DNA from: Lepidostoma basale
Taxonomy: Eukaryota; Arthropoda; Insecta; Trichoptera; Lepidostomatidae
Reading direction: 5' to 3'
DNA: 64,000 nucleotides
Assembly (NCBI GenBank): GCA_022606425.2
Contig: JAHDVF020001303.1
Span: 372,001-436,000 of the forward strand
The notes under the pieces are model-generated. The model saw nothing but the letters and a program-made list of their open reading frames with translations, was not told the DNA's origin and ran no database searches. Numbering within the stretch: position 1 is the stretch's first letter; every line of letters starts with the position of its first letter. The position numbers and the translations under genes were made by a program. Positions 342-63,639 of this stretch are shown piece by piece.

Positions 342-541
342 ATGTTTGGTGTGTTTTTGGGTAACACCGTGTGATATCTCCTTCTTGACCGACGTTTCGG
401 AGATCGTTGCAGTCTCCATCTTCAGGGTAATGAATGTGATATGAGTTGTGTCTGCTAAGCTACTTCACTGTTGTACCATGTCGCCGGCAGTGTGTACGTG
501 TGAAATAGAGAGAGTCCGTGCTAGGTTCCCCGAATTAGTTT
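342..541 (-). mobile_element. 200-bp insertion carrying a hammerhead-like motif
   Basis: The insert is bracketed by CCCATCTAAATGAT at 328-341 and again at 542-555. A perfect 14-bp target-site duplication points to insertion by a retroposon. Its minus strand holds a hammerhead-like motif (387-425) about 45 bases from the end at 342. A second copy of this end lies at 18030-18180. I see no tRNA promoter boxes, A-tail or coding frame. A Penelope-like or retrozyme-like non-autonomous element is the leading guess. Confidence 0.6.
387..425 (-). ncRNA. Hammerhead-ribozyme-like motif
   Basis: Minus strand: core CTGAAGA (425-419), one extra T (418), helix II GGAGA/TCTCC around a 9-nt loop, GAAAC (398-394), a GTCG loop, then GTC (389-387). 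Helix III would be two pairs, AC with GT, leaving C as the residue before cleavage. This fits the CUGANGA...GAAA...UH layout of type I minimal hammerheads. Activity is inferred, not shown. Confidence 0.6.
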
Positions 542-905
542 CCCATCTAAATGATCCATTTACTATTTTGCTCATAACACTTTCATTGGCAGTGTATTCA
601 ACTCTTATATTTGCATTTAACATTACACATTAACACATTTACTACACATTCATCTAAGAGATCTCTTGTCTACTGCATTTATTGTACTCATCATCATTCA
701 TCCTTCTTTTTCCAGTTCCATGCTTCACTTACATACAGAATGGTTGGCGCAAGAACACCATTGTGCACTGCCATCTTAACTTTGTTTTTATTTTGAACGG
801 ATACACTATAATGCAATTAAGCTTCGATATATTACACTGAAAGGTATTGCATAATAATTTCACTGCTTGTATTATGAACTTGGTGTACAAATCTAATTTA
901 ATAAT

Positions 906-1247
906 CTCACCTGATAATATGTAAGCAGAGAGAATGGACCGCCAAACTTTTCTATTCTGGAACACCTTTCTAGGTTCCACCACATTCATACAGCGAGTCA
1001 TACACGAACGTCCTTTCTTCCGACTTCTAACATGACAACCTTGAAAATTTGATTAATTTGGTCATGCCATGTTTTTCTCGGTCTGTCTCGACTCCGTACT
1101 CCATTTACATCATTAACGTATACTTTCTTAACCATTCTTTCTCCATCCATGCGCTCCATATGTCTGAACCTTTCATAATATTGTTCATAATACCTTCTTC
1201 CGCTCTACATTCCTTTCTTATATCAGCATTTGAGATGATGTCGTATA
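906..1247 (-). mobile_element. LINE-A fragment (subtype A2)
   Basis: Minus-strand translation gives a YDI..SNADIRKEC.AEEG..NNIM stretch and then the C-terminal TRCMNVVEPRKVF..RKVWRSILSAY. This matches the copy at 57322-57725 rather than the common subtype A1. It is truncated at both ends: no 3' GTTA tail remains, and the 5' break is near 1247. Confidence 0.75.
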
Positions 1248-1774
1248 TCAATATACTCGTACATCGATATTTCAATATATTTTAAAATAACTTGTTCTCT
1301 AGAAATCTGCGAACAAAAAACACCCATTATTTCTTCAAAAGAACCTCCGAGGCACTGTCACACGCAGAATCGGAAAAATAGTTCGGAATTGAAGAAACAA
1401 AATTTTGACAGGTTTGACTTGACAATTTCCTTTGAGCTCACGAAACTAATTTTGGTTTTAGTGAGCGCCTCGAATCCTTTTCAATTCTAAACTGAACACG
1501 AAGGAGTAAATAAACAATAAACATAGGAGGATTCTAAGGACTCACTGCGAATAGAGAAAATAAAATGTTCCCACGAAGAATTTCATTTGGTTCAGAGGAA
1601 TAGCGAAGTCGCATTATGTCTCATATGCGTAATAAAATAGTAGGATAAGGAATAAATAGCAGTGGTAGTCCGTTGTCTTTTATTTTTTTACAATCGTAAT
1701 TCTTTTTCTAATCAAATAAAAAATAATAGTAAAAATAATTAAAAAACATTTTACTTTTTTTTTACACCATTTTA
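1248..1774. other. No recognisable gene
   Basis: AT-rich sequence with frequent stops in all frames. I see no coding, RNA or repeat feature that I can support. Confidence 0.4.
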
Positions 1775-1987
1775 AATATGTATTTTGTATACAATAGGTC
1801 GTTAAAACCCAATTTGTACTGGTATATTTACTTACAGCTTTTATAATACGAGTATATTGACTCTCATAACATATAAAAGGTAGTATCACCATTTTATTGT
1901 CACGTGAATTCTATAAAAGACTAAAGACAGTGTGATAATCACATGGATGTGGCAGTCATCACTTGTTACTCTGTCACGAAGATCGCC
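1775..1987 (-). mobile_element. SINE-K fragment (tRNA-derived)
   Basis: Minus-strand match to the full SINE-K at 15417-15674: GATTGTCACACTGTCTTTGG-like body, AATAAAATGG segment, and the longer 3' part with a GGGTTTTAACGACC variant seen also near 42165, 49790 and 53345. The B-box region is decayed. Its 5' end abuts the hammerhead-like motif at 1988. Confidence 0.6.
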
Positions 1988-2023
1988 AACCAACCGGTTT
2001 CGCTCTCGCCAGAGCTTCTTCAG
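1988..2023 (-). ncRNA. Hammerhead-ribozyme-like motif
   Basis: Minus strand: CTGAAGA (2023-2017), extra A, helix II GCTCT/AGAGC closed by GGCG, then GAAACC, loop GGTT, GGT and T. It belongs to the same family as the motif at 6840-6875, whose helix II is GCTCC/GGAGC. One base pair has therefore changed on both sides between the two copies. Confidence 0.6.
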
Positions 2024-2079
2024 GATTATACTTGAACAATAGTTATTGCATCAGACTAAGTATTTTCGTAGTGACAACA

Positions 2080-2155
2080 ACAACAACAACACCATCACGC
2101 CACTTCGCCAGGGTAGGCAGAGAGAATGGACTGCCATACCCCTCTATCATTATAA
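2080..2155 (-). mobile_element. LINE-A 3' terminus
   Basis: Only the last 60-75 bases are present: the GGCAGTCCATTCTCTCTGCC block and a GTGATGG end followed by a (GTT)n tail, seen as ACAACAACAACAAC on the plus strand. The tail unit is GTT rather than GTTA. Confidence 0.65.
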
Positions 2156-2241
2156 CATAATATAATAGAAGTTCATTTTAAATAATGAAAATACATATAT
2201 ATTTTTTTGATACGATATTTCATTATTATTATATATTTAGT

Positions 2242-2336
2242 GCGCTTCCACTTGTGTTTGACGCCGACCGGTTTCGACCACCAGAAGATGGCAGCAAGCT
2301 GCCGAAACCGGGCGATGTTAAACACAAGTGGAAGCC
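2242..2336. repeat. Palindrome carrying a hammerhead-like half
   Basis: Arms of about 34 bp (2242-2276 and 2303-2336) share GCTTCCACTTGTGTTT and CCGGTTTCG in inverted orientation. Between them on the plus strand lies CAGAAGA (2282-2288), one T, helix II GGCAGC/GCTGCC, and GAAAC (2304-2308). The core has A where hammerheads have U4, so this version is probably inactive. Relatives lie at 55635 and 56427. Confidence 0.55.
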
Positions 2337-2911
2337 TACTAAATAAACAGGGTGTTCCAGAAGTCGACGTCAAGCCGGAAACGGATGATAGAAAAAGTCA
2401 TGCTAGTTACGAAAAAAATGTAAAAAAAAACTATGTTTTGTATTTTTAAAATTATTGGCATTAAATAAAAATGAGGAAATTAACACCCGTGTGTTTTTAC
2501 ATTTTTCTCATAACTAGCATGACTAGCCCTCTCATCAATTTCCTGAATTATTTATGACACCCTGAATTATTTATGAAATAATAATGCAAAACTCCACATC
2601 AATTAAATATGAAAGATAATATTTGCGATTAATGGTTGCATAATATTTCGACACCTTATCACACACAGATTTTCCAAATGTTGCTCTAAAAGATCTCAAT
2701 TCTACTGCAATTTCTTCTACTCTACTTTCATCCTTCGTACTACTCGTGTATAAAATCCAATCCGTGGTTAAAATATAACTTGTATTTTTTATTTTATTTA
2801 TTTAAAAATAATTTGACGTGATTTCGTGGTAATTCTTCAATCCAACGATTATCAAGAATCAAATTAACCCCATGAATAAAAAAGATATATTCTTAAGTCA
2901 TCCAAGTTTTA
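2337..2911. other. No recognisable gene
   Basis: AT-rich. A short inverted echo (GAAAAAGTCATGCTAGTTA near 2391 and TAACTAGCATGACTAG near 2511) suggests the ends of a small unknown repeat with an ACCCTG-like border near 2350 and 2560. Nothing coding is supported. Confidence 0.35.
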
Positions 2912-3660
2912 CCTGACCTTAAATGAAAAAAATGTAACATTATACACTTTGAAACACACAAGAAAAACCATAACATGTGCATAAAAATAAAAAATGACGC
3001 AATAACCGAACTCGACTATGTAAAGTACCTAGGACTAACAATGGACAAACAACTAAAATGGACAAAACACATAGACAACCTAACAGACAAGTTAGCATCA
3101 CTATATTCCCTCTTCTACAAAATACAGAATTATATACCAAGGAGTGAAAAAGTTATGATGTACGAAGCGTATGTTAAAAGCCGACTAACATATATGATTC
3201 CCTTCTAGGAACAGAAATCCAAAAGGACATCTCCAGACTCCAAAGACAACAATATAAAATAAAAAAATTAGCATATAACATTAACAATCTTACCCCAACC
3301 ATACAAGTTTACAGACAAACAAAACAAATGGACATATCATACCTGACCAAATTTGAGACCTTGAAAATTGTACACAGAGTGACCATGGAAGAGACAACAG
3401 ACAGCAGCTACAAATTAACTAAAACTTCAGACATACACAGACACTGGACCAGGAACTGTGACAGATATCACTTACCGAATGCATGAACTAAGACAGGACA
3501 ATCAAGGATATTGAATAATGGACTGAAACTTTACAATGAACTACCAAAAGACACAAGGAGTCTCACTACAACTCAATATAAAATCTGAAACATTACATAA
3601 TTAATAGTAAGATCTAAAAATGTATCCAAATAACCCAATTCGTTTTTAATTTTTTTTTAA
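2912..3660 (+). mobile_element. LINE-G reverse-transcriptase fragment
   Basis: The frame from about 2975 reads KIKNDAITELDYVKYLGL and LKWTKHIDNLTDKLASLYS, the thumb region after the catalytic core of a non-LTR reverse transcriptase. It breaks near 3208 and continues in pieces through HRHWTRNCDRYHLPNA and LKLYNELPKDTRS to a 3' end at AAATGTATCCAAATAACCC. A second copy with the same 5' and 3' limits lies at 33973-34731. The clade (CR1/Jockey-like) is a guess. The catalytic FADD region is absent. Confidence 0.8.
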
Positions 3661-4179
3661 ATAAAACAGTTTGTACATTATATTTCGCTGTGGAAATATC
3701 CGGATGCGGAAACATATTCGTAAAAAAAAATACACGAAGCATCCCTGAAAAAATAAATATAGAATACCCTTTGGAGTAAGCTTCGTGCATGAATGCCGTA
3801 TGATTTCAAATCTCCGTAACATCGCAAATAATAACTTATGATTGACGTCATTTCTGTGCGGATATAGATTTCATACTTCAGTCATAAACTCTCACATAAA
3901 GTCCACGTAAACTATCACAGGGGAGCTAACGTTTTCTTAATAAAGCGCAGATATTAATAACCATTTCCTAAATCATAAAATAAGCCAATAAACATTTTTA
4001 TAACCTTAAACCGATCATAGAGTTTATCATAACCCATAAACATCAAACTGTCGAGTTATGAAAATGGATACTCATCTTATATCGCAATTAAAAAAACGTA
4101 ATTATCCTTGTATAAGGTGACAGATTTATTAATTGTTTCTTAAGCAACGATATAAAACTCCATATTAAAAAATGAATAC
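3661..4179. other. No recognisable gene
   Basis: AT-rich unique-looking sequence. No frame, RNA motif or repeat that I can support. Confidence 0.4.
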
Positions 4180-4740: not shown

Positions 4741-4836
4741 TAAGATATTAGATAATCCATTGTTTTAGCCGGAAACACTATGATACTTAATAAAATGTTT
4801 CAAATTTAATCACAGTCATTTTTATGAGTTTGTCGC

Positions 4837-4872
4837 GACAGCGATTTCGCCAACTTATGTTGGCATCATCAG
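4837..4872 (-). ncRNA. Hammerhead-ribozyme-like motif (left arm)
   Basis: Minus strand: CTGATGA (4872-4866), extra T, helix II GCCAAC/GTTGGC, GAAAT, loop CGCT, GTC (4839-4837). Helix III has a T in place of C and so is weakened relative to the partner arm. Confidence 0.5.
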
Positions 4873-4898
4873 GTATTACAAACAATTGCTGTTTGTAC

Positions 4899-4934
4899 CT
4901 GATGATGCCAACATAGGTTGGCGAAACAGCCGTC
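4899..4934 (+). ncRNA. Hammerhead-ribozyme-like motif (right arm)
   Basis: Plus strand: CTGATGA (4899-4905), extra T, six-pair helix II GCCAAC/GTTGGC with loop ATAG, GAAAC (4923-4927), AGCC loop, GTC (4932-4934). All invariant core residues are present. Confidence 0.6.
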
Positions 4935-4999
4935 GCGGCAAATTCATAAAAATAATTTTTGATACGTACGAATAACAGTGATTCAAATTTTACATTTTA

Positions 5000-5496: not shown

Positions 5497-6290
5497 TAGG
5501 TTGGGGGAAAAGTAATTTCGTATTTCGCACTTTTTTTTTTCAACTAAGTATATCTCGTTCATTATTAGACACATCGGAGCATACAATACGGCGTTGTAAA
5601 GGTGTCAGTGTATACTACAAACGCTATATTGACAGTATAGCGTTTGGTCGTTTCAGTCGTGAACTATCGAACGTCGAGTATGGAGGTCTCAAAGGAAGAA
5701 ATTTGCCATATTTTACATTTTTACTACCTGAAAAGGAAAAACGCGCCGAAAGCGACCAAAAAAATTTGCGATGTGTACGGGGGCGATACTCTTTCGGTTC
5801 GTGCTGCACAACAGTGGTTCGAGCGATTTCGTTCTGGTGTAGTGGAGGTGAATGATGCACCACGCTCTGGCAGGCCCGTCGTTGAAAATGTCGATAATAT
5901 CATGGAAAATATCTAGATAGACCGTCATGTTAGCAGTCGTAGCATCGCCCAGGAGCTAAATATCGATCATAAAACCATTTTGAACCATTTGCAGAAGGCT
6001 GCATTAAAAAAAACTCGATGTTTGGGTGCCACGCGAGCTGACGCAAAAAAACCTCATGGACCGAATTTCCATCTGCGAATAGTTGCTGATTCGCAACAAA
6101 ATCGACCCATTTCTGAAGCGGATGGTGATGGGTCACTTACGACAATGTCAAGCAACAGAGATCGTGGTCGAAGCGGTCCAGACTGTGGCCAAGCCAGGAC
6201 TGACGGCCAGAAAGGTGTTGCTGTATGTTTGGTGGGATTGAGAGGGAATACTCTACTATGAGCTGCTCCCCTATATTCACATATAAGTCA
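5497..6290 (+). pseudogene. Mariner transposon, broken transposase
   Basis: The left terminal repeat TTAGGTTGGGGGAAAAGTAA begins after a TA at 5495-5496. The transposase starts at ATG 5680. It shows the N-terminal helix-turn-helix (KEEICHILHFYYLKR...AAQQWFERFRSG), then a stop near 5915, then RHVSSRSIAQELNIDHKTI in frame. Later parts need frame changes: DVWVPRELTQKNLMDRI is at about 6016 and the YVWWD...ILYYELLP block, which surrounds the second catalytic Asp, is at about 6222-6263. The stretch holding the first Asp (the GDEKW region) is mostly deleted near 6130, and the C-terminus and right repeat are missing. Members of this family cut and paste at TA; this copy cannot. Confidence 0.88.
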
Positions 6291-6321
6291 ACATTGTATA
6301 TTCACATATAAGTCAACTCAA
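6272..6321. repeat. 25-bp tandem duplication
   Basis: TATATTCACATATAAGTCAAC occurs twice at a 25-bp spacing, directly after the break in the mariner. A related CATTGTATTTTCACATAT lies just before the mariner at 5464, which may mark the site into which it inserted. Confidence 0.5.
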
Positions 6322-6645: not shown

Positions 6646-6839
6646 ATAAGTATTTTCACAACATTTTTTTGCACTTTTCACAAACATGTTTCTTGACCCA
6701 GACGCCAATCCTCAGTGCAGAAAATCAATTAAGGTAATTGCTGCATTAAAAAATGTTTCAAGGTATATTATGTTTTTTTTTAATAAATAAAATAAAAATA
6801 CACTTTTAGTATTTGTATCTAAACCACTTTAATTGGTAA

Positions 6840-6875
6840 CATCAATCGGTTTCGCTCCCGCCGGAGCTTCGTCAG
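6840..6875 (-). ncRNA. Hammerhead-ribozyme-like motif
   Basis: Minus strand: CTGACGA (6875-6869), extra A, helix II GCTCC/GGAGC with a GGCG loop, GAAACCGATTGAT. Position 7 of the core is C here; it is A or T in the other copies, and this is the one core site where any base is tolerated. Confidence 0.6.
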
Positions 6876-6947
6876 TGTGAGAGAGTAAACTGTCAGTTTA
6901 CTCTCTCACCCTTACGAAACTCCGGCGGAAGCGAAACCGGTTGGTTA
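6840..6947. repeat. Palindrome with inverted hammerhead-like arms
   Basis: A central perfect palindrome (GAGAGAGTAAACTG, T, CAGTTTACTCTCTC at 6879-6907) joins two inverted arms. The left arm holds a full minus-strand motif. The right arm (6911-6947) holds CTTACGA...GAAACCGGTTGG, a decayed partner that has lost G5. Confidence 0.6.
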
Positions 6948-8744: not shown

Positions 8745-9460
8745 ATATATGTGGTAATGATTTTTGAAAAAGAAGAAATCATGACAGTCTGCAAGATTAG
8801 CGTGAATGGTGAAAATTTGGGGCAAGTAGAGGAGTTCGTGTATTTAGGTAGTTTGTTTACAAAAGATGGGCGAGTGGAGAGGGATATTGAAAGAAGGGTT
8901 GGGGCAGGCAACAAAGTGAATGGTGCACTTAAAGTTGTCATCGCAAACAAAAACCTATCCAAAAAAGCAAAAAATGGCAGTGCACAATGGTGTTCTTGTA
9001 CAGACCCTTATGTATGGAAGCGAAGCGTGGAACTGGCAAAAGAAGGACGAAAGTAGAATAAATGCGGTAGAAATGAGATCTCTTAGACGAATGTGTGAAT
9101 ACTCTGTGTATGATAGAGTGTCGAATGAAAATATAAGAAGTGAATGCAGTGCCAATGATGGTGTTATGAACAAAATAATGAAAGGATCATTAAGATGGTT
9201 TGGACACGTGGTAAAAAAAGTATATGTTAACGATGTAAATGAAACTAGAAATAGAGGAAGGCCGAGGAAAACGTGGCACGATCAAATAAATTATATGTTG
9301 AATGTCGGCCACGTGAGGAGTCAGAGAAATCGACGCGCGTGCATGACACGATGTATTAATGTTGAGGCAGCGAGAAAAATATGTCAGTAAAGAAATAGGT
9401 GGCAGTCTATTCTTTCTGGCTATCCCTTCGGGGATACGGCGTGATGGTTAGTTAGTCAGT
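8745..9460 (+). mobile_element. LINE-A, longest copy (subtype A1)
   Basis: This copy defines the family. It begins inside the reverse transcriptase after the catalytic core (TVCKISVNGENLGQVEEFVYLGSLFTKDGRVERDIERRVGAG, broken here into shorter pieces by the annotation limit: EFVYLGSLFTKDGR then VERDIERRVGAG). It continues through LMYGSEAWNWQKKD, MRSLRRMC, a frameshift near 8970, KGSLRWFGH and RGRPRKTWHDQIN, to a stop, then SILSGYPFG and GTGATGGTTAGTTAG at 9439-9455. About 15 residues after WFGH (the ERMNEER region) are deleted. The enzyme copies its own RNA into chromosomal nicks. No EN or FADD motif remains, so this is a 5'-truncated dead copy. Confidence 0.88.
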
Positions 9461-9850: not shown

Positions 9851-10049
9851 GATATTAAAAAAAATATATTTATTAATTACCTTAATCAAATTCCGGAGTA
9901 AGTAAATAATCACTTTCAAAAACATATTTTGTAATTTTTATTGTTTGACATTTCTTTCAAGTAGAACAAAAACATTTAAAAATGTATTCTTCTGTTCCAG
10001 AAAATAGTACATTGATTAATTTAATAAATGGGTACTTAAATAGTCCATT

Positions 10050-10385
10050 GTTTTGGCCAAAATACTATGAAGTTATTATTTACTGTTATAATATAAAACG
10101 CTCTTTATAGTATTACAATTTTTTTATTATTTATATTTCTATTTTATTTTTCGCGACAGCTGTTTCTAACTCAACTCAACTCAACCTTACTCAACACCAA
10201 CAAGAGTTTCAAAATGCTTTCAAAGAAATTATTCAAATTTTTATCGGAACAAATGCACATACCATAAAGGTTAAATCGAAAATTAATTTTAACGGTTGAA
10301 AAAAATATTGTAACACCTGATAATGTCAACATCGGTTGTCGAAACAGCTGTCGCAAAAAATTGGGATACTGAAAACATCATTTTA
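10050..10385. mobile_element. Palindromic element, broken copy
   Basis: It has the shared border CCATTGTTTTGGCCAAAATAC (10053). The left arm is reduced to GCGACAGCTGTTTC (10153-10166) and then runs into unrelated DNA. The right arm carries the motif at 10317-10352. Between them is a segment (about 10200-10260) that also occurs at 8380-8450. Confidence 0.5.
10317..10352 (+). ncRNA. Hammerhead-like motif, mutated core
   Basis: CTGATAA (G8 to A), extra T, helix II GTCAAC/GTTGTC with one mismatch, GAAAC (10341-10345), AGCT loop, GTC. G8 takes part in catalysis in known hammerheads, so this copy is probably inactive. Confidence 0.45.
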
Positions 10386-10574
10386 TAATTTAACAGTTAA
10401 TAAAGTAGGAACTCTGTTAATAATAATAAAATTACCAAGATTCTCGTTCATATTGTGTTATTATGAATAGCGTAATAATTTGATTTAAGGTGTTCCTGTT
10501 CATATCGAAATATTTTATGTCATCTAATGAAACTCGTATTTGGTAAATAATATATTTTTTAATGTTAATTTTAT

Positions 10575-11069: not shown

Positions 11070-11657
11070 TGTAAATGAAAAATACGTACATGAATGGTGC
11101 ACTTAAAGTTGTCATCGCAAACAAAAGCTTATCCAAAAAAGCCAAGATGGCAGTGCACGATGGTGTTCTTGTGCCGACCCTTATGTATGGAAGTGAAGCA
11201 TGGAACTGGCAAAAGACGGATGAAAGTAGAATAAATGCAGTAGAAATGATATCTCTAAGACGAATGTGTGGCAAATCTATATATGATAGAGTGACAAATG
11301 CAAGTATAAGAAGTGAATGTGGTGCGAATGAAAGTGTTATGAACAAAATAAGGAAAGGGTCATTAAGATGGTTTGGACAATGGAAAGAATGAGTGAATAC
11401 AGAATGGTAAAGAAGGTATATGTAAACGGCGTGAACGGAGCTAGAAATAGAGGAAGGCCAAGGAAAACGTGGCACGATCAAATCGATCAAATATTGAATG
11501 TCGGTCACACGAGGAGTCGGAGAAATCGAGGTGCGTGCATGACAAGATGTATGAATGTAGAGGAATCGAGAGAAGTATGCCAGGACAGAACAGTGTGGCA
11601 TTCCGTTCTTTCTGTCTACCCCTTCGGGGAGACGGCGTGATGGTTAGTTAGTTAGTT
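11070..11657 (+). mobile_element. LINE-A copy with 11-bp target-site duplication
   Basis: AATGATTATAA flanks it at 11059-11069 and 11658-11668. The frame from 11075 runs GALKVVIANKSLSKKAKMA, LMYGSEAWNWQKTDESRINA, RKGSLRWFG, then slips one base near 11380 and continues MVKKVYVNGVNGARNRGRP, RKTWHDQIDQILNVGHTRS, TRCMNVEESREVCQDRTVW, SVLSVYPFGETA and stop. The tail is GTTA repeats. About 20 extra bases at the 5' junction do not match the family. The protein closely resembles the copy at 48037, with CGKSIYDRVTNASIRSECG. Confidence 0.88.
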
Positions 11658-15685: not shown

Positions 15686-15720
15686 TACGAGTAGTTTCGC
15701 TTTATCTCAAGCTTCATCAG
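15686..15720 (-). ncRNA. Hammerhead-ribozyme-like motif
   Basis: Minus strand: CTGATGA (15720-15714), extra A, helix II GCTT/AAGC, GAAAC (15698-15694), TACTC loop, GTA. Helix III is AC with GT and the residue before cleavage would be A. It is single, not palindromic. A decayed relative lies at 39322-39356 with the same CTGCCCTGAT lead-in. Confidence 0.5.
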
Positions 15721-16565: not shown

Positions 16566-16569
16566 GACA

Positions 16570-18029: not shown

Positions 18030-18180
18030 AATAATTTTACATATTTTGTGTGATTTTGGGTAACACCGTGTGATTTCTCCTTCTCGACCGACGTTTCGGA
18101 GATAGTTGCAGTCTCCATCTTCAGGGTAATGTGGTGGTGGTAAGGGTAATGTGGTGGGGTGTGATGGTAATTCATGCTAA
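18030..18180 (-). mobile_element. Second copy of the hammerhead-bearing insertion
   Basis: Matches 342-430: GTGTGATTTTGGGTAACACC, CGTGTGAT, TCTCCTTCT and the ribozyme-like block, followed by a partly duplicated GGTAATGTGGTGG. Beyond 18180 the two copies differ. Confidence 0.6.
18086..18124 (-). ncRNA. Hammerhead-ribozyme-like motif
   Basis: Minus strand: CTGAAGA (18124-18118), extra T, helix II GGAGA/TCTCC with a 9-nt loop, GAAAC, GTCG, GTC. It differs from 387-425 only in the helix II loop (CTGCAACTA against CTGCAACGA), so all core and helix residues are conserved between two distant copies. Confidence 0.65.
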
Positions 18181-29905: not shown

Positions 29906-29935
29906 CGTATATTAATAATACTGATAATTAATAAT

Positions 29936-38900: not shown

Positions 38901-39081
38901 TTGGTTATAATAAAAAATAGAAAGCATGCGTTTTCATTTGAATTAATTAATAATAAAATGATTTATTAAATTTTCATATGAAGCACTCACATTGTGGTTG
39001 TTACTAAAAAAACTTGTTACTGTTAAAATTAAAAACACTGTTATAATATCACAATTTCTTTTTATTCACTGAGAGTGTCGC

Positions 39082-39117
39082 GACAACTGTTTCGCCAACC
39101 GATGTTGGATTCATCAG
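39082..39117 (-). ncRNA. Hammerhead-ribozyme-like motif (left arm)
   Basis: Minus strand CTGATGA, extra A, helix II (T)CCAAC/GTTGG(C) with the pair next to the core lost, GAAAC, AGTT loop, GTC. Confidence 0.55.
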
Positions 39118-39133
39118 GTGTTACAATAAACAC

Positions 39134-39169
39134 CTGATGATGCCAACATCGGTTGGCGAAACAGCTGTC
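39134..39169 (+). ncRNA. Hammerhead-ribozyme-like motif (right arm)
   Basis: CTGATGA (39134-39140), extra T, helix II GCCAAC/GTTGGC with an ATCG loop, GAAAC (39158-39162), AGCT, GTC. No core substitution is visible. The ACAGCTGT of helix III is self-complementary, so two molecules could also pair there. Confidence 0.65.
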
Positions 39170-39275
39170 GCGACATTCTAAGTGAATTAGAAGTAGTTGT
39201 GATATTATAACAGTATTTTAAATTTTAACAGTAATAATTTTGAAGTATCATAGTGTTTCGGCCAAAACAATGGAC

Positions 39276-39996
39276 TAAAAAGAACTTGGTATTTAACCAC
39301 GGTATGGTTATTTTAATTAATACCAACTAGTTTCATTTGGACCCAAGCTTAATCAGGGCAGTATAACAACGATAAGTATATAATATATATAAAAAGGTAA
39401 TTTATTTCTTATAAGACTTATAAATTAAGTCTAAGGTTTTGCGTAAGAGAACATTCGTGAATAAAAAAAAAGTATTTAAAAAAACTCAAGACGAAATTGT
39501 TATTAATGCATATACTCGTACATGTATTCTACAAAAAATGAACATAATCATTCGACAAAAAGCTGATCAATATAAACGCTTATTAGAAAAGTTAGATAAA
39601 ATAACTTTGGAGTACCCCGTGTAGCGATAAAAAGGTCAAAAGTTCGGGGAAGTTGTAGAAACATGTGGATTGATACGATGCCCCAGATTACGGTTCTGTG
39701 TTAACCTAAAGTTTTAATGAACTCCTTGGGATTATGATTAAAATCTGCTTGAGGCAGACGCAAATAGATTGGTATCTTATTCCCGGAGGACGGATACGGA
39801 GTAGGTTCTTGGTTTTAAAACGATACCAAATATTCTAAAATGACACGAGGAGCAACGAATGTTGTAGCATAATGGAAATATGCATCAATTGTGAATCAGG
39901 TAAAAAAACTTTTGTGTAATACAGTGGTTATTTTATACCCGGAGGAAGTTTCCAAGCAGCAAAATATATACGAGTACAGTGTATATAGATATAAAA
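39276..39996. other. Mostly unmatched; one decayed ribozyme-like motif
   Basis: Minus strand 39356-39322 reads CTGATTA..AAGCTTGG..GAAAC, related to 15686-15720 with G8 changed. The frame at 39439-39624 (KKKVFKKTQDEIVINAYTRT..) matches nothing I know and is probably chance. Confidence 0.35.
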
Positions 39997-40298: not shown

Positions 40299-40340
40299 AC
40301 TATTTTCTATTAATAACTATTTTTTATAAAGCCTATACAA

Positions 40341-40856: not shown

Positions 40857-41627
40857 TATACGAATCTCACTTTATTATTATGAGATTGTCACGACGGCTA
40901 TTATTACAACCTTTATTGTTTCTTAGATCATGTATTGTTTCTTAGATCGCATAATAATTAAAACAAACTGTTTTCGTATTAGACAAAGACATCATTATAT
41001 TTATATTATAACAAAAAATTCAAACAATATACGTGTGTAATGTATACACGGTGTTTATTATACGAGCGTACTACATGCATACGTACTATTTACGATTTAT
41101 GTAAACCAAGTCGCTTAACATGCAGCCTGCAGTTTCTGACAGAATTCGCAAACAGGTCCTGACTGCATTGTGTCCTATATAACGTAATACAAAGCTTGTC
41201 TGACAGAATTACCTTAAAACCGCAGCCAGGCGTCCTCCCGACTGCGGTATCCGGAAGTGATATGGGTTGTTATTCTAAAGGGGGTCCCTCACTAACCCGA
41301 TGGTTAATTAAACCCAACAATAATTATTTCACTTTGCTGACAACCCGTTCAACTTTGGCTTTTTGCAAATTTGATTTGAGTTAGATTGAAAGTTTACTTC
41401 AGACTGTCGTGAATGTGGCCGTTTATGTGCTCAACCCTTATCAATGTTTTGCGTTTTTGGAGTGGAAAACATTTGTTACGTAATATGGACTGCTTTCTAA
41501 ATTGGCATTCATTGGATTTGAATATGTAGAGAGTTTGTTTTTAAAAATAATGGAATTAAAAAATACAATTGAGAATAATTTAACATAATGAGACAATTTA
41601 TGATTTTTTTTGTGAATTTTAAAACAT
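40857..41627. other. No recognisable gene
   Basis: 41130-41350 has a near-normal base composition and a 62-codon frame (ITLKPQPGVLPTAVSGSDMG..) that I cannot place. TCTGACAGAATT occurs twice (41139, 41200). Possibly part of an unknown element. Confidence 0.35.
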
Positions 41628-41721
41628 TGTTTTGGCCGAAACACTATGATATTTTAACATTTTATAACTGTTAATTCAAAAACTTTGTTTTATATCACAA
41701 ATTGTATTTATTTTACTTTAC

Positions 41722-41757
41722 GACAGATGTTTCATCAACCAATGTTGACATCATCAG
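41722..41757 (-). ncRNA. Hammerhead-ribozyme-like motif (left arm)
   Basis: Minus strand CTGATGA (41757-41751), extra T, helix II GTCAAC/GTTGAT (one G-T wobble), GAAAC, ATCT loop, GTC. Compared with 39134 the helix has two changed pairs, both still able to pair. Confidence 0.55.
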
Positions 41758-41794
41758 GTGTTACAAAAATATATATTGATTTAGTAGAATAAAC

Positions 41795-41831
41795 ATGATT
41801 GATGTCAACATTGGTTGATGAAACAGCTGTC
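41795..41831 (+). ncRNA. Hammerhead-like motif, core with inserted T
   Basis: ATGATTGA replaces CTGATGA, then T, GTCAAC/GTTGAT, GAAAC (41820-41824), AGCT, GTC. The core is disrupted, while helices II and III are preserved. Confidence 0.45.
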
Positions 41832-41889
41832 GTAAAGTAAAATAAATACAATTTGTGATATAAAACAAAGTTTTTGAATTAACAGTTAT

Positions 41890-42159
41890 AATTTTAAAAC
41901 ATTTTCTCGACATATTTTTTTATGGTTTTATGCCTTCATCATCGAAAAATCGATAGCAAATAACCAAAAATAAATTAAAACCTAGTACGAGATGTAATAA
42001 AAGAACTTGGAAGAATATTAAAAATTACAGGAAGTTAGAGGTATTCAATTAATATGATTTTTCGTATTTTTTAAGGGAGAGACAATAACAAAAAACAAAA
42101 CAAATCTTGAGTTATGTATGAAAAAAATATTATCAAACATTTTTTGTACGAGTATTTTT
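41890..42159. other. No recognisable gene
   Basis: TTTTCTCGACATATTTTTTT and GCCTTCATCATCGA at 41905-41950 recall family Q. Otherwise unmatched. Confidence 0.35.
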
Positions 42160-43875: not shown

Positions 43876-44774
43876 CCTTATCATGTTTAAATATTTATAA
43901 AGTTGTTTCATGTGAAAACTTTTTTGCACACATGAATAAGTCTTGCTGACGAGTCAAAAATAGACTAGAGTTTATTCCAGCGAGATCTTACAATTCGTAA
44001 CATAACGAACAAATATAAGTTATAAAATGAGTTGTGAGACTTAAAACAGACATTAGGGATGTACTGATTAATAGATAAATTGCCTTAACATAAAAAGTTC
44101 TTATGGAGTCATGTTTATATGTTATTCTGCGATGGCTTGAGCGATTAAACAGTGGGTTTCATTTATGTTTAAATACGCAAGATTTGCCGCAGTTAACTGA
44201 AGTAATTAATAATTGAAACTGTCCTTAACCCAGAAACGGGGTATTATTCCGGGAACGGCTAGAATTTCACGTTCACTTCGAGTGCGTGTTATGAAAACAA
44301 TATAAATGCAAATTGGAAAATTTAATACTAACGTAGGTACTGAGCTTCGTATACGTTTATACACGTGTTAACCGGTGGCGTACGTTTTTCCTCAAATGTA
44401 ACAAAAACGAATATTTGTTAAGAGTAAATTTGTGAAAAGCGCTATTTTTTGCAAATATTTGTCACAAAGACGTATTTAAAACTGCGTATAACTCTTAAAC
44501 AATATAGGCTTAATAATTATCACCCATACAAGCGATGCAATTGATATTGATTGCGATTTATAAAAAAATACTGTTTTAATTAATTAATAATTGTACGATT
44601 CCCGTTATATTACGATTTCTATTATGTATTATTATATGGTATTACACGCCTTTAATTATATATCGAAAGACATAAATATCAAAAATATGCATGCTTTAAA
44701 AAGGGTTATTATAATAGAAACAATAATTTATTCATGAAAGTAAAATTGACCCTCCACAATAGAGTTCTATTTCA
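43876..44774. other. No recognisable gene
   Basis: AT-rich; no frame or repeat supported. Confidence 0.4.
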
Positions 44775-52795: not shown

Positions 52796-53297
52796 ACTAA
52801 CTAACTAACCATCACGCCGCCTCCCCGAAGGGGTAGACAGAAAAAATAGACTGCCACACTTTTCTTTCCCGACATATTTCTCTCGCTTTCTCAACATTCA
52901 TACATCGTGTCATGCACGCGCATTTCTCTGACTCCACACATGGCTGACATTCAATATTTAATTTATTTGATCGTGCCACGTTTTCCTCGGTCTTCCTCTA
53001 TTTCTGGTTCTAATTACATTGTTAACATAAACTTTTTTACCATTCTTTCTTCATTCATTCTTTCCATGTGTCCAAACCATCTTAATAATCCTTTCATAAT
53101 TTTGTTCATAACACCATCATTCGCACCGCATTCACTTCTTATATTTTCATTCGACACTCTATCATACACAGAATATTCACACATTCGTCTAAGAGATCTC
53201 ATTTCTACTGCATTTATTCTACTTTCATCCTTCTTTTGCCAGTTCCATGGTTCGCTTCCATACCTAAGAGTCGGTATCAGAACACCATTGTGCACTT
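52796..53297 (-). mobile_element. LINE-A copy (subtype A1)
   Basis: Minus strand frame 53304-53014: HNGVLIPTLRYGSEPWNWQK, MRSLRRMCEYSVYDRVSNEN and IMKGLLRWFGHMERMNEERM, then breaks. NRGRPRKTWHDQIKYILNVS and VWQSIFSVYPFGEAA continue to three GTTA units (52796). It follows 52619-52775 in the same orientation. Confidence 0.87.
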
Positions 53298-54089: not shown

Positions 54090-54328
54090 TATTTTGACAG
54101 CGATTGGTTTCTCCAGGCTAGCTGGTATTGACATACTGAGGCACTAGGAAGATAAAATGTGTAACTCGCAATTAAAAAAAAACATCACTCTTTTTGCTTT
54201 TTGCACAGTGCACATATTGAATAGAATCATTTATTATTATTTTAAACTAATTTAAATAGATAGAAAAAATTCAACGATTGAATAGTTTGTTTTTAACACC
54301 ACTAAATTTTGTTTCTTAAACACCACCT

Positions 54329-54359
54329 ACTGGTTTCGCTTCAAGCAGAGCCTCATCAG
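54329..54359 (-). ncRNA. Hammerhead-ribozyme-like motif
   Basis: Minus strand: CTGATGA (54359-54353), extra G, helix II GCTCT/GAAGC (with an A-C mismatch and a wobble) and a GCTT loop, GAAACCAGTAGGTG. Core intact, helix II weakened. Confidence 0.45.
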
Positions 54360-54406
54360 TGTATCAAAATAATTTGGTTTAGTTTGTTTTGTTATACTGA
54401 AGAAGT

Positions 54407-54438
54407 GTCGCCTGATACGAAACTTGTTGTTAGTATTA
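54407..54438 (+). ncRNA. Hammerhead-ribozyme-like motif
   Basis: CTGAAGA (54407-54413), extra A, helix II GTGTC/GATAC (five pairs with one G-T) and a GCCT loop, GAAAC (54429-54433), TT, GT, T. Different helix II from all other families but the same spacing. Confidence 0.55.
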
Positions 54439-54445
54439 AAATAAA

Positions 54446-55199
54446 TTAATGGTTAAAAATTTCGTTTGTTTGTAAAAATGTACTTAATAAAATGTATGTA
54501 ATGTAAATTAAGTGCTTTATACGAAAGAATTATTTAGATTATCACCAAAAGCAATATAAGTATCCCTTAAAATTAGTAAAAACAGCCTTTATATCCACTT
54601 CACACTTTAAGTAAGCTGAAGTAAATGCTAAAACCATTTCCATAAACCGGAAACTCAGTAACATGGAGTTAATGTTCTCCGCACCCCCTACCCTACCACT
54701 AAAGACATATTTCTACTTTGCGATACTTTGCCGAGAAAATCTTATGCCAACTTCCAAGCGAGCGTAAACATTCCGTGGAAACTAAGTATTTTATCTTCAA
54801 TTAAAACGATAATTGAAATGAGAATCGGCTTACAAATTTTAACACTTCTCCAAACAATTTAATGGAAAACTTTAAAAATATTCATCTTCTATAATTAGTT
54901 TTGTATGATGAACGCTTTATTTTGTTGTGATACAGATTTTTAATAGATTAATTAGGTTTTTTGATACACCAAACTCTAGAATCTCTTATGGTCATAATAA
55001 GTGTTTAAAAACAAATCATTTTCAGTCTCAAGCGACTGACATACCATAGTTAACGTGTTAAAAAGAATTTTAATTATTAATAGTACTAATATTTTTATGA
55101 ATATAATATGAACAGTATTTGATTATGTGAAATGTAATCATTATTTAAAAAATAATAATTAAATGAAGCAATGTTTTTAACAGCTTCCACTTTTTTTCT
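54446..55199. other. No recognisable gene
   Basis: AT-rich, unmatched. Confidence 0.4.
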
Positions 55200-55395
55200 T
55201 TATTTCGACAGCGACAGGTTTTGCCAGGCTCGCTGGTATCGACAGACTGGTGACACTTTTGCAAACCGAGTTCTTTATATACATACAGACCAGGTATATA
55301 AAAGACTCGGTTTGCAATAGTGTCACCAGTCTGTCAATGCCAGGGGGCCTAGCGAAACCGGTCGCTGTTAAAATAAAGACAAAGGTGGAAGCAGT
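55200..55395. repeat. Palindromic element, divergent ribozyme-like arms
   Basis: Left arm GACAGCGACAGGTTTTGCCAG..GACAGACTGGTGACAC and right arm GTGTCACCAGTCTGTCAATGCC..GCGAAACCGGTCGCTGTT are inverted copies, with CAAACCGAGT/ACTCGGTTTG closer to the centre. The arms contain CTGTC(G/A)A, T, a CCAG-CTGG-type stem, then GAAACC. Residue A6 of the core is replaced, so it is unclear that it was ever a hammerhead. Confidence 0.5.
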
Positions 55396-55634: not shown

Positions 55635-55668
55635 CAGAAGATGGCAGCGAGCTGCCGAAACCCGGTCG
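55635..55668 (+). ncRNA. Hammerhead-like motif (U4 variant)
   Basis: CAGAAGA, T, helix II GGCAGC/GCTGCC with a GA loop, GAAAC (55657-55661), CCGGTC. It shares the A-for-U4 change with 2282 and 56427, so the change is ancestral to this family. Confidence 0.4.
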
Positions 55669-56426: not shown

Positions 56427-56460
56427 CAGAATATGGCAGCGAGCTGCCGAAATCGGTCGA
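56427..56460 (+). ncRNA. Hammerhead-like motif (U4 variant, decayed)
   Basis: CAGAATA, T, GGCAGC/GCTGCC with GA, GAAAT, CGGTC. Both core halves carry changes, while the six-pair helix II is perfect. Confidence 0.35.
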
Positions 56461-57321
56461 AGTCTTTCTTTTATTTTTAATAATAATATCCGGGACAAAG
56501 CGACAATACAAAAATATATTACATAATACAATATTTAAAATTATTATTGTTGCAATCATTGCTGACATTGCCTTACATGCCAGTCTGTATACGTCAGTGA
56601 CATTGATGAATCCGGTCACAGTAATGAGATTCATACCTTTTCTCCATATTTCCATTGTGCTAAAAACAAGTAATGCCTCTTGTGAATATATAAATAAATT
56701 GTTAAATATAATAATCTTACATATCTTTTGATTGTAACATTATGTCTAAAAAGCCAAATAATATTTAAAAATAAACAGTTTTAATGAACTATTCGGCAGA
56801 TGTCATAATATTTTTTGTTAAAATTTGGAATCAATATTATTATTAAAAATTATTGTTTTTATTTAACATTTTTGTATAAAAATATATAATATATGTATCA
56901 GCTTGGAAATCCGTCACTGCATTATAAATTAAATTATATATTTATTAGATAACCGATTGTTTTGGCCGAAACACTAAGATATTCGTATTAGATATTCAAC
57001 AAAATATTTAAAACACTGTAACTGTATGTTTCACGATTTATTTTTTCTACAGTTGTTGCTGCGTTTAAAATTCAAGAGTTTTAAAAAAAATTATAATGTA
57101 TTTATGTACATGTGCATATAAAAATTGCTGTATGTTACTCTAAATAAATTGCATTAAAATACTACATTGAATTATGGATTTTTTAAATGGTATGTTTTTG
57201 AAAAATAAATGTACCATATATAATATATTTGTTAACACTTTCCAATGAAACAACATTTTCAGATATCTCGTAAGATGGTAAAATTATGTGTTATTATTAA
57301 GCAGAATTTAACTTAATATAC
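56461..57321. other. No gene; one palindromic-element border
   Basis: TTGTTTTGGCCGAAACACTAAG at 56950 is the shared border of the ribozyme palindromes, but no arm follows. Otherwise AT-rich. Confidence 0.35.
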
Positions 57322-58811: not shown

Positions 58812-58819
58812 TACGCGGC

Positions 58820-61535: not shown

Positions 61536-61559
61536 TGAAAATAATAGATTCGAATAATA

Positions 61560-61980
61560 TAGACCTGTATGGAGTATCTTGATGTACGGCTGCTAGACAT
61601 GGTGCCTATCCGAAAAAAATAAACGGGGACTAGAGGCTTTTGAGATGTGGTCCTATAGAAGACTATTAGGAATTTCCTGGAGAGACCACATTACAAATGA
61701 GGAGGTTCTCCAAAGAATCGAAGGAGGAAGGCACCTTGTCCAAAAGGCGTGCAAGATGGATCGGCCATGTAATACGACAAGAAGGCCTGTTGCATGCTAT
61801 AATGGAGGGTATGACCGAGGGGACAAAATCTAGGGGACGTCCACCCCGAGAGTACCTGGAGGACCTGTTGGTGGACGTGCGCTGCTCATCATATGCAGAT
61901 TTCAAAAGAGCCGCACAAGACAGGGAAGAATGGAAGAGAAGAATAGAAGAAATTGCTGCAAACCAATCCCAGGATTGAAA
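61560..61980 (+). mobile_element. LINE-O, C-terminal fragment
   Basis: Frame 1: LEAFEMWSYRRLLGISWRDH, ITNEEVLQRI. After a frameshift near 61720, frame 2 (to 61978): KRRARWIGHVIRQEGLLHAI, GTKSRGRPPREYLEDLLVDV, SSYADFKRAAQDREEWKRRI and stop. A separate LINE family with one copy here. It joins directly to LINE-I. Confidence 0.82.
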
Positions 61981-61984
61981 CCAG

Positions 61985-62120
61985 AGAGAGAGAAACAGAA
62001 GACTGGGAGAAAATGGAAAGAGTTAAGGAATGAAGAGAGATGGCCAGGGACAGAAGCCAGCGAAGAACTGTTGTGCAGAAGGCCAAGTCCCACACCGGGA
62101 TGAAGCGCCGAGAAGTAGTA
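61985..62120 (+). mobile_element. LINE-I 3' terminus, (AGT)n tail
   Basis: RNRRLGENGKS and MKRDGQGQKPAKNCC in the +1 frame correspond to DWEKMER...EMARDRSQRRTV, then KSHTGM. It ends GCCGAGAAGTAGTAGTAGTT, a third tail type for this family. Confidence 0.75.
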
Positions 62121-62984
62121 GTAGTTATCTTAACACAATGTTTGCTGGAAGGGTCTTATTACCCATTTACTGGACAAGTGATAGTCGACGGGAGGGACTC
62201 GACGTAAACTATTATTTTTACAGTAATGTATTTATTGTTTCTTGAACAATGATGTAAAAATTCTATATTAAATAATTAATACAAATGATAACGTCTGTTT
62301 TTTAAAATTTGTAATTCAACTTCTAGAATTTCTTCTATATTCGCCATACTTTGTGTTGTGATGATGATTTATTTCTCATTTTCTTTTTTATAAACTTTGT
62401 ATATACTCGTACATACTTACATTTAAAAAAATCAAATTACATAGACATGTTTCGGACAACCAGTCCTTCTTCAATGATACATATTATAAAAATACATATT
62501 TAAAATACCAGTATTATAAAATTGTTAACATGATGTGTCTTATTAATTTGATAATGTCTTAGAAAGAGGAAACGTGTCATTGTCATAAATTATAATTAAA
62601 CATACAGAAAACAGATGTTTTCACGTGTATTGATTATTTTTACTGTACACATACAAATATATGTATGTTTTCATTGTATTTCAGCTAAAAACAAGGCCCT
62701 TCTATCTGCAGATTTGTTTTAAGGAGTTATATAATCTTAGACAAAGCTATATATTATTTATTAATGTTGCTAATTGAAGTGTCTTCGCATAAGTGTATTG
62801 TAAATACTGGAAATTTGTTCAGATAGGTTTCGATTCACCTTCTCTTAACTACATCAAAGTTTCTTAAGTTTAAATATGGAATACTCTTAGTGGGGGTTGG
62901 ATAAAGTAGTGTAAATTTATTCCTGGTGATTACCAGCGGCAAAAAAAAGAATATTTTATTCTGTCAGACAGATTCAACCTGCCT
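62121..62984. repeat. Family P pieces and a ribozyme-like motif in AT-rich DNA
   Basis: 62265-62320 and 62545-62635 carry family P ends (AATACAAATGATAACGTCTG; TTTGATAATGTC, AGGAAACGTGTCATT). The motif at 62444-62474 lies between. No coding content. Confidence 0.4.
62444..62474 (-). ncRNA. Hammerhead-like motif (C3 variant)
   Basis: Minus strand: TTGAAGA (62474-62468), extra A, helix II GGAC/GTCC with a TGGTT loop, GAAAC, AT, GTC (62446-62444). T replaces C3, which pairs with G8 in active ribozymes, so activity is doubtful. Confidence 0.4.
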
Positions 62985-63060
62985 ATGGTGATGCCGGTAA
63001 TAAAAGTTAATTGGATACTGGAAATCTATAATCACGGATGTGGACAGTTTAATATCAGTT
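62985..63060 (+). mobile_element. LINE-M fragment
   Basis: TFRFNLPMVMPVIKVN-like residues match NLPMVMPLSRAIPLL at 36720, from the diverged LINE-M subfamily. Confidence 0.5.
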
Positions 63061-63116
63061 ATAGTTCGTCCCCCGTCCAAGCAGGACTGGTGTTAATAAA
63101 ATGATCATTAAGATGA

Positions 63117-63155
63117 TACGGTATATCCCTTCGGATAAACGATGTGATGGTTAGT
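63117..63155 (+). mobile_element. LINE-A/SINE-J 3' scrap
   Basis: TATATCCCTTCGGATAAACG and ATGTGATGGTTAGTAAG correspond to the last 35 bases of the shared end. Confidence 0.5.
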
Positions 63156-63639
63156 AAGACAATCATTCTTTAACCAGTGAGAACAATGTTGTTTTCATTT
63201 TCAAAGTAAATAATTAAACATGCGTCAAATACCAACCTCACGTGGGTTATTCATACAATGCTTCATTATCCAATCCCAAACGTAATACACATTTTTTCAG
63301 CTTCCCACACTGACTCATGCAAAAACTGTCTCTAAATTACATGCGAACGTCTTAAACCGTTTACAAATGAGTCAACTCTTCATTATGATTATTAAAAAAA
63401 AAAATTATATATATATTTTTTTTTTCCTTATATGTTCGCCATAACTTTGTGTTGCAGATATTTAATGTTTCTTTTTTTATATTACTTTGTATACTCACAT
63501 TTATAAAAAAAGCTAAAAAAAATTATATCAAACATGTTTTGGACAAACCAGCACTTCATCAGTGATATTAAAATATATAAATATTTAAAATATTTTAAAA
63601 TTGCTTACAAATATGGACAGTTTTGACAGATGTTTTAAT
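63156..63639. other. AT-rich spacer with a weak ribozyme-like motif
   Basis: Minus strand 63562-63532: CTGATGA, A, GTGC...GTCC (poor pairing), AAAAC, AT, GTT. It is a decayed relative of 62444. Nothing else supported. Confidence 0.35.

What the first reader, a model, noticed from the sequence alone, without database searches (positions are those of the whole stretch)
387..63562. A dispersed set of hammerhead-ribozyme-like motifs from several families in one 64-kb window
About a dozen sites keep CTGANGA + helix II + GAAA(C/T) + a short helix III: 387, 1988, 4837, 4899, 6840, 15686, 18086, 39082, 39134, 41722, 54329 and 54407. Others are decayed. They belong to at least five helix II sequence families. 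Base 7, the only free core base in known hammerheads, is A, T or C in different copies, while the fixed bases agree. Minimal hammerheads are known from Penelope-like elements and animal retrozymes. That the motifs here are functional or Penelope-derived is inference.
Basis: partly seen in the sequence, partly recalled or inferred. Interest (0 to 1): 0.93.

Follow-up and report, generated by a model that had tools for sequence, protein, structure and literature searches.

The report
Penelope retroelement hammerhead-like motifs
The scattered ribozyme-like motifs are real; most of them look like relics of Penelope-like jumping genes, whose end repeats carry a small two-copy hammerhead motif, here with one extra base in its catalytic core.

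Summary
In detail: all 12 sites carry CTGANGA + stem II + GAAA, and 10 pass a strict stem test against 0.04 expected. Family F (three sites) has a changed core.

For one stem type the genome (769 Mb) has 4,880 motifs with it and one without.

The motifs sit in Penelope-like element (PLE) debris. Family B elements are head-to-head arms with a tail on one arm (39 of 40 scored copies) and target duplications. Of 30 genome GIY-YIG loci, 19 carry a family G or H motif 375-471 nt downstream; one 758-codon frame also has RT. That direct link was not shown for the window's own families.

Between families three helices are supported: stem II covaries, stem III is self-complementary, stem I pairs in 8 of 12. 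This fits the dimer-type hammerhead reported for PLEs.

Window copies look inert: the core is no better kept than its surroundings among 60 B arms, and long-ORF family G has A6 to T. Catalysis is untested.

The parts
395..425 (-). Family A motif: CTGAAGA + T + stem II (19 nt) + GAAA, then ACGT palindrome + C
   Evidence: the 40 scored (best) of 1017 genome candidates are 97-100% identical over 100-101 bp, window copy included
18094..18124 (-). Family A motif, second copy
1998..2023 (-). Family C motif: CTGAAGA + A + stem II (14 nt) + GAAA, ACCGGT palindrome + T, stem I 5 bp
6837..6947 (-). Family C palindromic element: two head-to-head arms (56 of 64 identical; score 87, largest of 40 controls 31); motif 6850-6875
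   Evidence: 40 of 1571 genome candidates scored
4757..4953 (-). Family B element 1: inverted arms 4818-4897/4877-4953 (68 of 82; score equals largest control), motifs 4845-4872 (-) and 4899-4926 (+), tail ending 4757; no target duplication found
10045..10403 (-). Family B element 2, decayed: motif remnant 10317-10344 (+, G8 to A), tail ending 10045; arm homology not above control
39003..39281 (+). Family B element 3: arms 38999-39140/39111-39250 (121 of 143), motifs 39090-39117 (-) and 39134-39161 (+), tail on + arm ending at AAAACAATGGACTA, ACTAAAAA on both sides (on the right its first four letters may be element)
41617..41902 (-). Family B element 4: arms 41649-41777/41768-41902 (122 of 137), motif 41730-41757 (-), tail, 10-bp direct repeat GTTTTAAAAT on both sides
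56954..56994 (-). Family B-like tail remnant; no motif seen in the 420 bases before it by eye
15695..15720 (-). Family E motif, decayed (no palindrome)
54290..54459 (+). Family D pair: motifs 54334-54359 (-) and 54397-54422 (+), head to head; inverted homology weak (58 of 84, not above control)
2234..2345 (+). Family F element: core CAGAAGA (U4 to A) motif 2282-2307 with inverted arms (37 of 43; score 56, below the largest control 94)
55635..55660 (+). Family F motif, second copy
56427..56452 (+). Family F motif, third, more decayed copy

Best explanation
These are remnants of several families of Penelope-like retroelements. The pseudo-LTR of each family carries a minimal type I hammerhead of the dimeric kind. 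In RNA the motif would fold as stem I (3-7 bp in most families), the CUGANGA core, one bulged base, stem II and GAA. Then comes a self-complementary segment beginning at A15.1 and ending at U16.1; with a second copy it would form stem III across two RNAs or two tandem pLTRs. Cleavage would follow the next base (C, U or A), and would release or trim element-length RNA.

Insertion by target-primed reverse transcription starting inside the element would leave the one-sided tail, the head-to-head inverted arms and the target duplications. The window copies are short non-coding leftovers: about 270 bp in family B and about 115 bp in family C.

Shown: motif, extra base, covariation, arms, tail, duplications, and PLE-type protein domains beside the motif in the same genome (families G and H). 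Inferred: PLE origin of each window family, dimerisation and cleavage. The window copies are probably inert.
For: Counts far above chance and stem II covariation. GIY-YIG: 62 matches (150 of 541 candidates scored). A 758-codon frame has RVT_1 (1.4e-13) and GIY-YIG (6.6e-5), with the motif 389 nt after the frame and an inverted copy before it. Named relatives among the 120 listed are insect RT or uncharacterised proteins. 20 of 30 GIY-YIG loci have a one-extra-base motif downstream on the same strand, one core mismatch allowed (family G needs it): 16 family G, 3 family H, 1 a separate B insertion. 0 of 30 have the no-extra-base form, 4 of 30 a two-base reading; shuffles 0.7%, 0% and 0.3%. B copies: direct repeat of at least 8 nt in 19 of 30 against 7.3% in re-paired flanks. 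The tail is on one arm in 39 of 40 scored copies: rc matches stop at query 231-247, full ones at 274-279; one copy (C603) has it on both. Palindrome at A15.1: 12 of 15 at 4 nt or more, 11 of 15 at 6 nt or more; at shifts 2-8 at most 3 and 1 (shift 1, nested in it, 11 and 1). Stem I of 3 bp or more in 8 of 12, permuted mean 1.5.
Against: No Rfam hammerhead hit at any listed site even at E up to 10. No PLE protein domain in the parts of the window scanned. Among 60 B arms the core is no better conserved (0.953) than stem II (0.963); outer flank 0.925. Family B has only 1 bp of stem I, and F, J and J2 have none. The stem III/stem I model was chosen after a first model had failed, and the 15 representatives were picked by hand from one-base scans. 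Family G has A6 to T in 40 of 41 counted occurrences; F has U4 to A. Arms of the B element at 4.8 kb and of F did not beat the largest random-window control. Direct linkage to EN was seen only for families G and H. Passages of PMC11167929 say no RNA ends were found at the PAc cleavage site. No transcript or cleavage data here.
Confidence: 0.84

Rival explanations
1. The motif is a cis-acting PLE RNA or DNA element, such as a binding, priming or dimerisation site for the RT-endonuclease, that descends from a hammerhead but is no longer a ribozyme. The extra base after A9 is the mark of lost catalysis. (This shares the PLE origin with the best explanation and overlaps with it.)
For: The extra base dominates genome-wide. 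The family with long RT+EN frames spread with A6 to T and F with U4 to A. In the lizard PLE PAc, passages of PMC11167929 say ribozyme mutants do not affect insertion in vitro and that cleavage needs protein.
Against: Stem I, stem III and the cleavage base (never G in 12 of 12 palindromic representatives) stay coordinated between families, which binding of stem II alone would not need. The same paper's methods mention self-cleavage of a PLE hammerhead at 3-25 mM Mg2+ in earlier work.
Confidence: 0.35
2. Short palindromic DNA transposons (MITE-like foldback elements) in which a hairpin resembles a hammerhead.
For: Family C is a near-complete 115-bp palindrome in 40 scored copies; no Pfam domain in the scanned surroundings of the window copies except mariner pieces.
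Against: The tail on one arm in 39 of 40 B copies, direct repeats of 8-15 nt in 19 of 30 and the same kind of motif beside RT/GIY-YIG frames fit PLEs, not terminal-inverted-repeat transposons.
Confidence: 0.06
3. Animal retrozymes: non-autonomous tandem repeats with canonical type I hammerheads.
For: Small non-coding elements with hammerhead cores; PLEs have been proposed as their movers (passages of PMC7229834).
Against: Canonical spacing is nearly absent: 1 genome match for each of two canonical-spacing patterns. B and C elements are head-to-head inverted, not tandem.
Confidence: 0.03
4. Chance matches to a short consensus.
For: Rfam gives no significant hit.
Against: 10 against 0.043 expected; 4,880 genome matches against 0 for the reversed pattern.
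Confidence: 0.01

Closest known systems
[quoted passage not shown] Lunse et al. 2017; neither held here, known from citations in held papers and recall)
   Same: Same host element, CUGANGA/GAAAC core, diminished stem III, dimers, thousands of dispersed copies
   Different: Here one extra base follows A9; whether those papers show it could not be checked
PAc, the Poseidon PLE of Anolis carolinensis (PMC11167929, passages seen)
   Same: RT + GIY-YIG protein, pLTR hammerhead, optional 30-40 nt tail; its ORF starts at the start of stem II with C3 and G8 upstream, which would fit an AUG made of A9, an extra U and G10.1 (inference)
   Different: Here a stop codon follows 11-13 codons after that ATG in families G and B (read from the sequence), and protein relatives show no such N-terminus (4 of 110)
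Adineta vaga Penelope families (PMC3846280, passages seen)
   Same: Head-to-head inverted pLTRs with palindromic junctions, a 31-bp optional tail on one, TSDs of 8-10 bp
   Different: Several of those keep ORFs; the window copies are pLTR-like pairs only. The word hammerhead does not occur in its main text
Newt and axolotl satellite hammerheads (passages of PMC6155905 and PMC7229834)
   Same: Weak stem III with a palindromic segment, active as dimers
   Different: Tandem satellites or retrozymes with stem I/II loop contacts; the passages seen mention a U-U mismatch at the base of stem II in one type, no extra base after A9

Membership tests
Hammerhead ribozyme, type I | Core CUGANGA ... GAAA | tested here: met
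   12 of 12 listed sites, which were picked by it; F has U4 to A, G has A6 to T, E2 has G12 to A
Hammerhead ribozyme, type I | Stem II directly adjacent to A9 and G12 | tested here: not met
   One extra base on the A9 side in 12 of 12 sites and 60 of 60 B arms; genome 4,880 with against 1 without. [quoted passage not shown]
Hammerhead ribozyme, type I | Stem III closing at A15.1-U16.1, cleavage base not G | tested here: met
   As a self-complementary dimer segment in 12 of 15 representatives, next base C, U or A in all 12
Hammerhead ribozyme, type I | Stem I joining the two outer ends | tested here: inconclusive
   3 bp or more in 8 of 12 palindromic representatives (permuted mean 1.5); 0-1 bp in B, F, J, J2; an earlier model found none
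Hammerhead ribozyme, type I | Match to the Rfam covariance model | tested here: not met
   No listed site at E up to 10; in the genome one match over cut-off, elsewhere (73 of 94,533 candidates scored)
Hammerhead ribozyme, type I | Self-cleavage | not testable with these tools
   needs RNA chemistry
Penelope-like element | RT + GIY-YIG protein | tested here: inconclusive
   Both domains in one frame for family G, GIY-YIG for H, in the same genome; none beside the window copies in the parts scanned
Penelope-like element | Inverted or direct pLTRs with an optional 30-40 nt tail | tested here: met
   Family B: inverted arms in 40 of 40 scored copies, tail on one arm in 39, on both in 1
Penelope-like element | Target-site duplication | tested here: met
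   Direct repeat of at least 8 nt in 19 of 30 B copies against 7.3% control
Penelope-like element | RT closest to telomerase RT | not tested
   no tree built
Animal retrozyme | Tandem monomers with canonical hammerhead spacing | tested here: not met
   1 genome match for each of two canonical-spacing patterns; B and C elements are inverted

The most novel reading that the evidence does not exclude
The extra base after A9 marks a distinct PLE class of hammerhead that is inactive, or nearly so, as bare RNA. It would cleave only as a dimer held by the element's own RT-endonuclease, so cleavage is tied to assembly of the insertion complex. The family-G lineage that spread with A6 to T would show that insertion has become independent of cleavage.
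Probability: 0.25. Interest if true: 0.7.

Novelty: new member of a known kind. Interest (0 to 1): 0.42.

Why it matters
The role of PLE hammerheads is described as unknown (passages of PMC7761336). This genome offers several families with different stems, dimer palindromes and core states (intact, A6 to T, U4 to A) in one host, and thousands of copies of at least one stem type. That makes the question testable: which states cleave, and does insertion need cleavage? The extra base may also help explain why the standard covariance model misses these motifs.

Tried and rejected
First stem I test: it modelled stem III as a hairpin with a loop of at least 4 nt and found stem I of 0-2 bp, no better than control. 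With stem III as a self-complementary segment the result reversed. The second model was chosen after the first failed; both are reported.

First duplication test took only plus-strand matches and so read about half of the copies from the wrong arm; one search replaced it.

Start codon inside the motif: families A, B, F, G and H read ATG across A9, the extra T and the first stem II base. The idea that PLE proteins begin there was tested on relatives. 'M + ET' N-termini occur in 4 of 110 M-starting proteins (of 120 listed) against a control mean of 2.1 and maximum of 6, so no support. A search with the family A N-terminal stretch had 1 candidate and no hit.

Simple alternative hairpins (CUG/CAG and similar) appear in MFE folds but differ in register between families. 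Single-site folding energies are unremarkable (z -1.4 to +0.6 for six sites; the inverted pair at 39 kb z -6.2).

Viral and prokaryote collections gave 4, 0 and 1 hits. By eye four look like chance; L004 has a zero-insert stem of 7 bp but no Rfam gathering hit. A sequence search of solved structures with the L037 frame gave one weak RT match. None informs the question.

Not answered: genome pattern counts for a 2-base insert (GCC/GGC stem), the GTC/GAC one-insert partner, family G A6 to T, and a GGAG/CTCC pattern. One search lists 4 of 30 loci with a 2-base-insert reading: by eye two (L017, L023) are slipped copies of family H, one (L024) is a second reading of E2, one (L025) looks unrelated.

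Full report
What was checked. The 12 sites were read directly. Nine lie on the minus strand. All carry CTGANGA, a stem (broken at one pair in two of them) and GAAA. A strict scan finds 10 sites with one base between CTGANGA and a stem of at least 4 bp, against a mean of 0.043 in 300 dinucleotide shuffles. With zero bases there is 1 site, with two 0, with three 0, with four 1. Stem II covaries only in the one-base register: pairs 1-5 form in 11-12 of 12 sites, with two to four pair types each. In the zero-base register pairs 1 and 2 form in 1 and 3 of 12. So the motif is real, and its core differs from the textbook hammerhead by one extra base after A9. The sites were picked by their core, so 'fixed bases agree' is partly circular: family F (CAGAAGA, three copies, the third CAGAATA) and the site at 10317 break it.

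What carries the motifs. Family B in the window consists of two head-to-head arms: 121 of 143 identical at 38999-39250, 122 of 137 at 41649-41902, 68 of 82 at 4818-4953; C at 6837-6947 has 56 of 64. The scores of the 39-kb, 41.7-kb and 6.8-kb pairs exceed the largest of 40 random-window controls; the 4.8-kb pair equals it (92), and F (56 against 94) and D (29 against 30) do not exceed it; the controls may contain other repeats. A tail ending in AAAACAATGG(ACTA) sits on one arm. Direct repeats flank two elements (ACTAAAAA; GTTTTAAAAT). In the genome (769 Mb, 1572 contigs) the element at 39 kb gave 40 scored copies out of 5068 first-look candidates. All 40 also match in inverted orientation. In 39 the inverted match stops at query position 231-247 while the full one reaches 274-279, so the tail is on one arm; in one (C603) both arms have it. 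In 30 fetched copies a direct repeat of 8 nt or more flanks 19, against 7.3% when flanks are re-paired at random. An optional tail of 30-40 nt, inverted pLTRs and TSDs are the PLE signature described in PMC11167929 and PMC3846280 (passages seen).

Link to PLE proteins. Searching the genome for GIY-YIG gave 62 matches (150 of 541 candidates scored). A 758-codon open frame (L037; L038 has one with the same N-terminus, the two loci 4260 of 4340 columns identical) has RVT_1 at 1.4e-13 and GIY-YIG at 6.6e-5. A protein search with it gave 1330 relatives at E up to 1e-20 among 7995 scored; of the 120 listed, the named ones are from moths, butterflies, beetles and locusts. The frame begins at the inverted copy of its own 3' region, so it is probably cut short at the 5' end (inference). 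A motif of family G lies 389 nt after the frame, and an inverted copy before it. Of 30 GIY-YIG loci, 20 have a one-extra-base motif downstream on the same strand when one core mismatch is allowed (family G needs it): 16 of family G and 3 of family H at 375-471 nt, and one (L011, 828 nt) that is a separate B insertion. None has the zero-base form, 4 have a two-base reading; shuffled flanks give 0.7%, 0% and 0.3%. No PLE domain was found in the window parts scanned: 1-12 kb, 14-19 kb, 37.5-42.5 kb and 52.8-57.8 kb, six frames each. For window families A-F the PLE origin therefore rests on element structure and the shared motif, not on a protein in the same copy.

The extra base genome-wide. With a GCC/GGC stem, the one-base pattern matches 4,880 times (2448 forward, 2432 reverse; reversed-pattern control 0). 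The zero-base pattern matches once. With a GTC/GAC stem, the zero-base pattern matches once, and that match reads like a family B copy that lost the base; its one-base partner did not complete. The base is present in 60 of 60 B arms (58 T, 2 A). In 90 kb of flanks around B copies, 3 motifs occur, all with one extra base, none with 0, 2 or 3. Fifteen representatives, chosen by hand from one-base scans and so carrying it by construction, have T in 5, A in 9 and G in 1.

All three hammerhead helices between families. The segment after GAA is self-complementary, starting at A15.1: ACGT in A, ACAGCTGT in B, ACCGGT in C, C2, F and G, ACATGT in H-K and J2, ACTAGT in E2 (whose G12 is A). That is 12 of 15 representatives at 4 nt or more and 11 of 15 at 6 nt or more; shifts of 2 to 8 give at most 3 and 1, and shift 1, which lies inside the palindrome, 11 and 1. 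The three without one (D1, D2, E) are decayed window copies. The next base is C, T or A in all 12. From that base, stem I pairs 3 bp or more in 8 of 12 (summed 36 bp). Permuting upstream and downstream parts gives 1.5 and 11.4 on average, and none of 5000 permutations reached either value. C/C2, E/E2 and J/J2 are related, so the families are not all independent. Stems I and II are in the minimum-energy fold for H and largely for I, E2 and C, not for A, B and G. This is the architecture of a dimer-type minimal hammerhead, as described for PLEs, newts and axolotl (passages of PMC6155905, PMC7761336, PMC7229834). An earlier test that found no stem I used a hairpin model of stem III; the second model was made after it.

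Against function of these copies. Among 60 B arms the major-allele frequency is 0.953 in the core, 0.963 in stem II and its loop, and 0.925 in the outer flank. That fits neutral decay from a source, with no sign that the core is kept in copies. Rfam finds no hammerhead at any site. Family G, with the long RT+EN frames, has CTGTCGA (A6 to T) in 40 of 41 counted occurrences (overlapping loci counted more than once), although an A6-intact relative exists (CTGACGATGCCAGCGAGTCTGGC, listed). So this lineage spread with a core that, from general knowledge of hammerhead mutants (recalled), should cleave poorly. In PAc, ribozyme mutants do not affect insertion in vitro, cleavage needed the PLE protein, and no RNA reads ended at the cleavage site; the same paper's methods mention self-cleavage of a PLE hammerhead in earlier work (passages of PMC11167929).

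Age. The 40 scored family A copies are 97-100% identical over 100-101 bp (of 1017 candidates). The scored B copies are 87-92% identical to the window's copy, C matches 83-93%. These are the best candidates, so they flatter each family's youth.

What is known and what is not. Minimal hammerheads in PLEs and their dispersal by the thousand are known (passages of PMC7761336 and PMC7229834). [quoted passage not shown] I did not find the extra base described. Searches for 'hammerhead ribozyme'+'Penelope', 'hammerhead ribozyme'+'extra nucleotide'+'helix II' and 'hammerhead'+'Penelope'+'bulge' returned 22, 3 and 2 papers; I saw passages of eight papers and the listings of the rest. The two key papers (Cervera 2014, Lunse 2017) are not held. 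I therefore call this a new member of a known kind.

Noticed in passing
window 8920-9460 and many related stretches (e.g. 11091-11656, 29935-30409, 40328-40857, 48037-48559, 52796-53296): Many 65-94% identical fragments resembling the end of a non-LTR retroelement RT-like frame (by eye), often joined to a repeated GC-richer block near CCATCACGCCGTCTC.
   Followed up: no
window 32880-32969: Near-perfect inverted repeat of that block; gives sub-threshold microRNA and sRNA Rfam hits.
   Followed up: no
window 55238-55338: Near-perfect ~40-bp inverted repeat; mir-1263-like Rfam score 51.6 against cut-off 95, probably a foldback element.
   Followed up: no
window 31246-31782 and about 5690-6310: Mariner (Mos1-type) transposase fragments; the first is up to 94% identical over two thirds of its length to Trichonephila clavipes copies, suggesting an arthropod host.
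   Followed up: partly
window 2910-3665 and 33970-34727: A 777-column repeat pair at 85.6% identity; no Pfam match at the first copy.
   Followed up: no
window 43940-43986: The only hammerhead-model match listed for the window (RF00163, 21.7 bits, cut-off 34), not one of the listed sites.
   Followed up: no
L006 1501-1617 (G000:C844): The only RF00163 match reported in the genome (38.7 bits), aligned with zero-base spacing and a very long stem II loop.
   Followed up: partly
L004 2349-2385: IMG/VR contig with CTGAAGA directly followed by a 7-bp stem II and GAAACGTC; possible canonical hammerhead, no Rfam gathering hit.
   Followed up: partly
family B tail, e.g. window 39264-39277: The tail ends AAAACAATGGACTA, which could be the first codons (ATG GAC TA.) of the PLE frame; several protein relatives begin MDY or MDF. 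If so, reverse transcription starts at the start codon (inference).
   Followed up: partly
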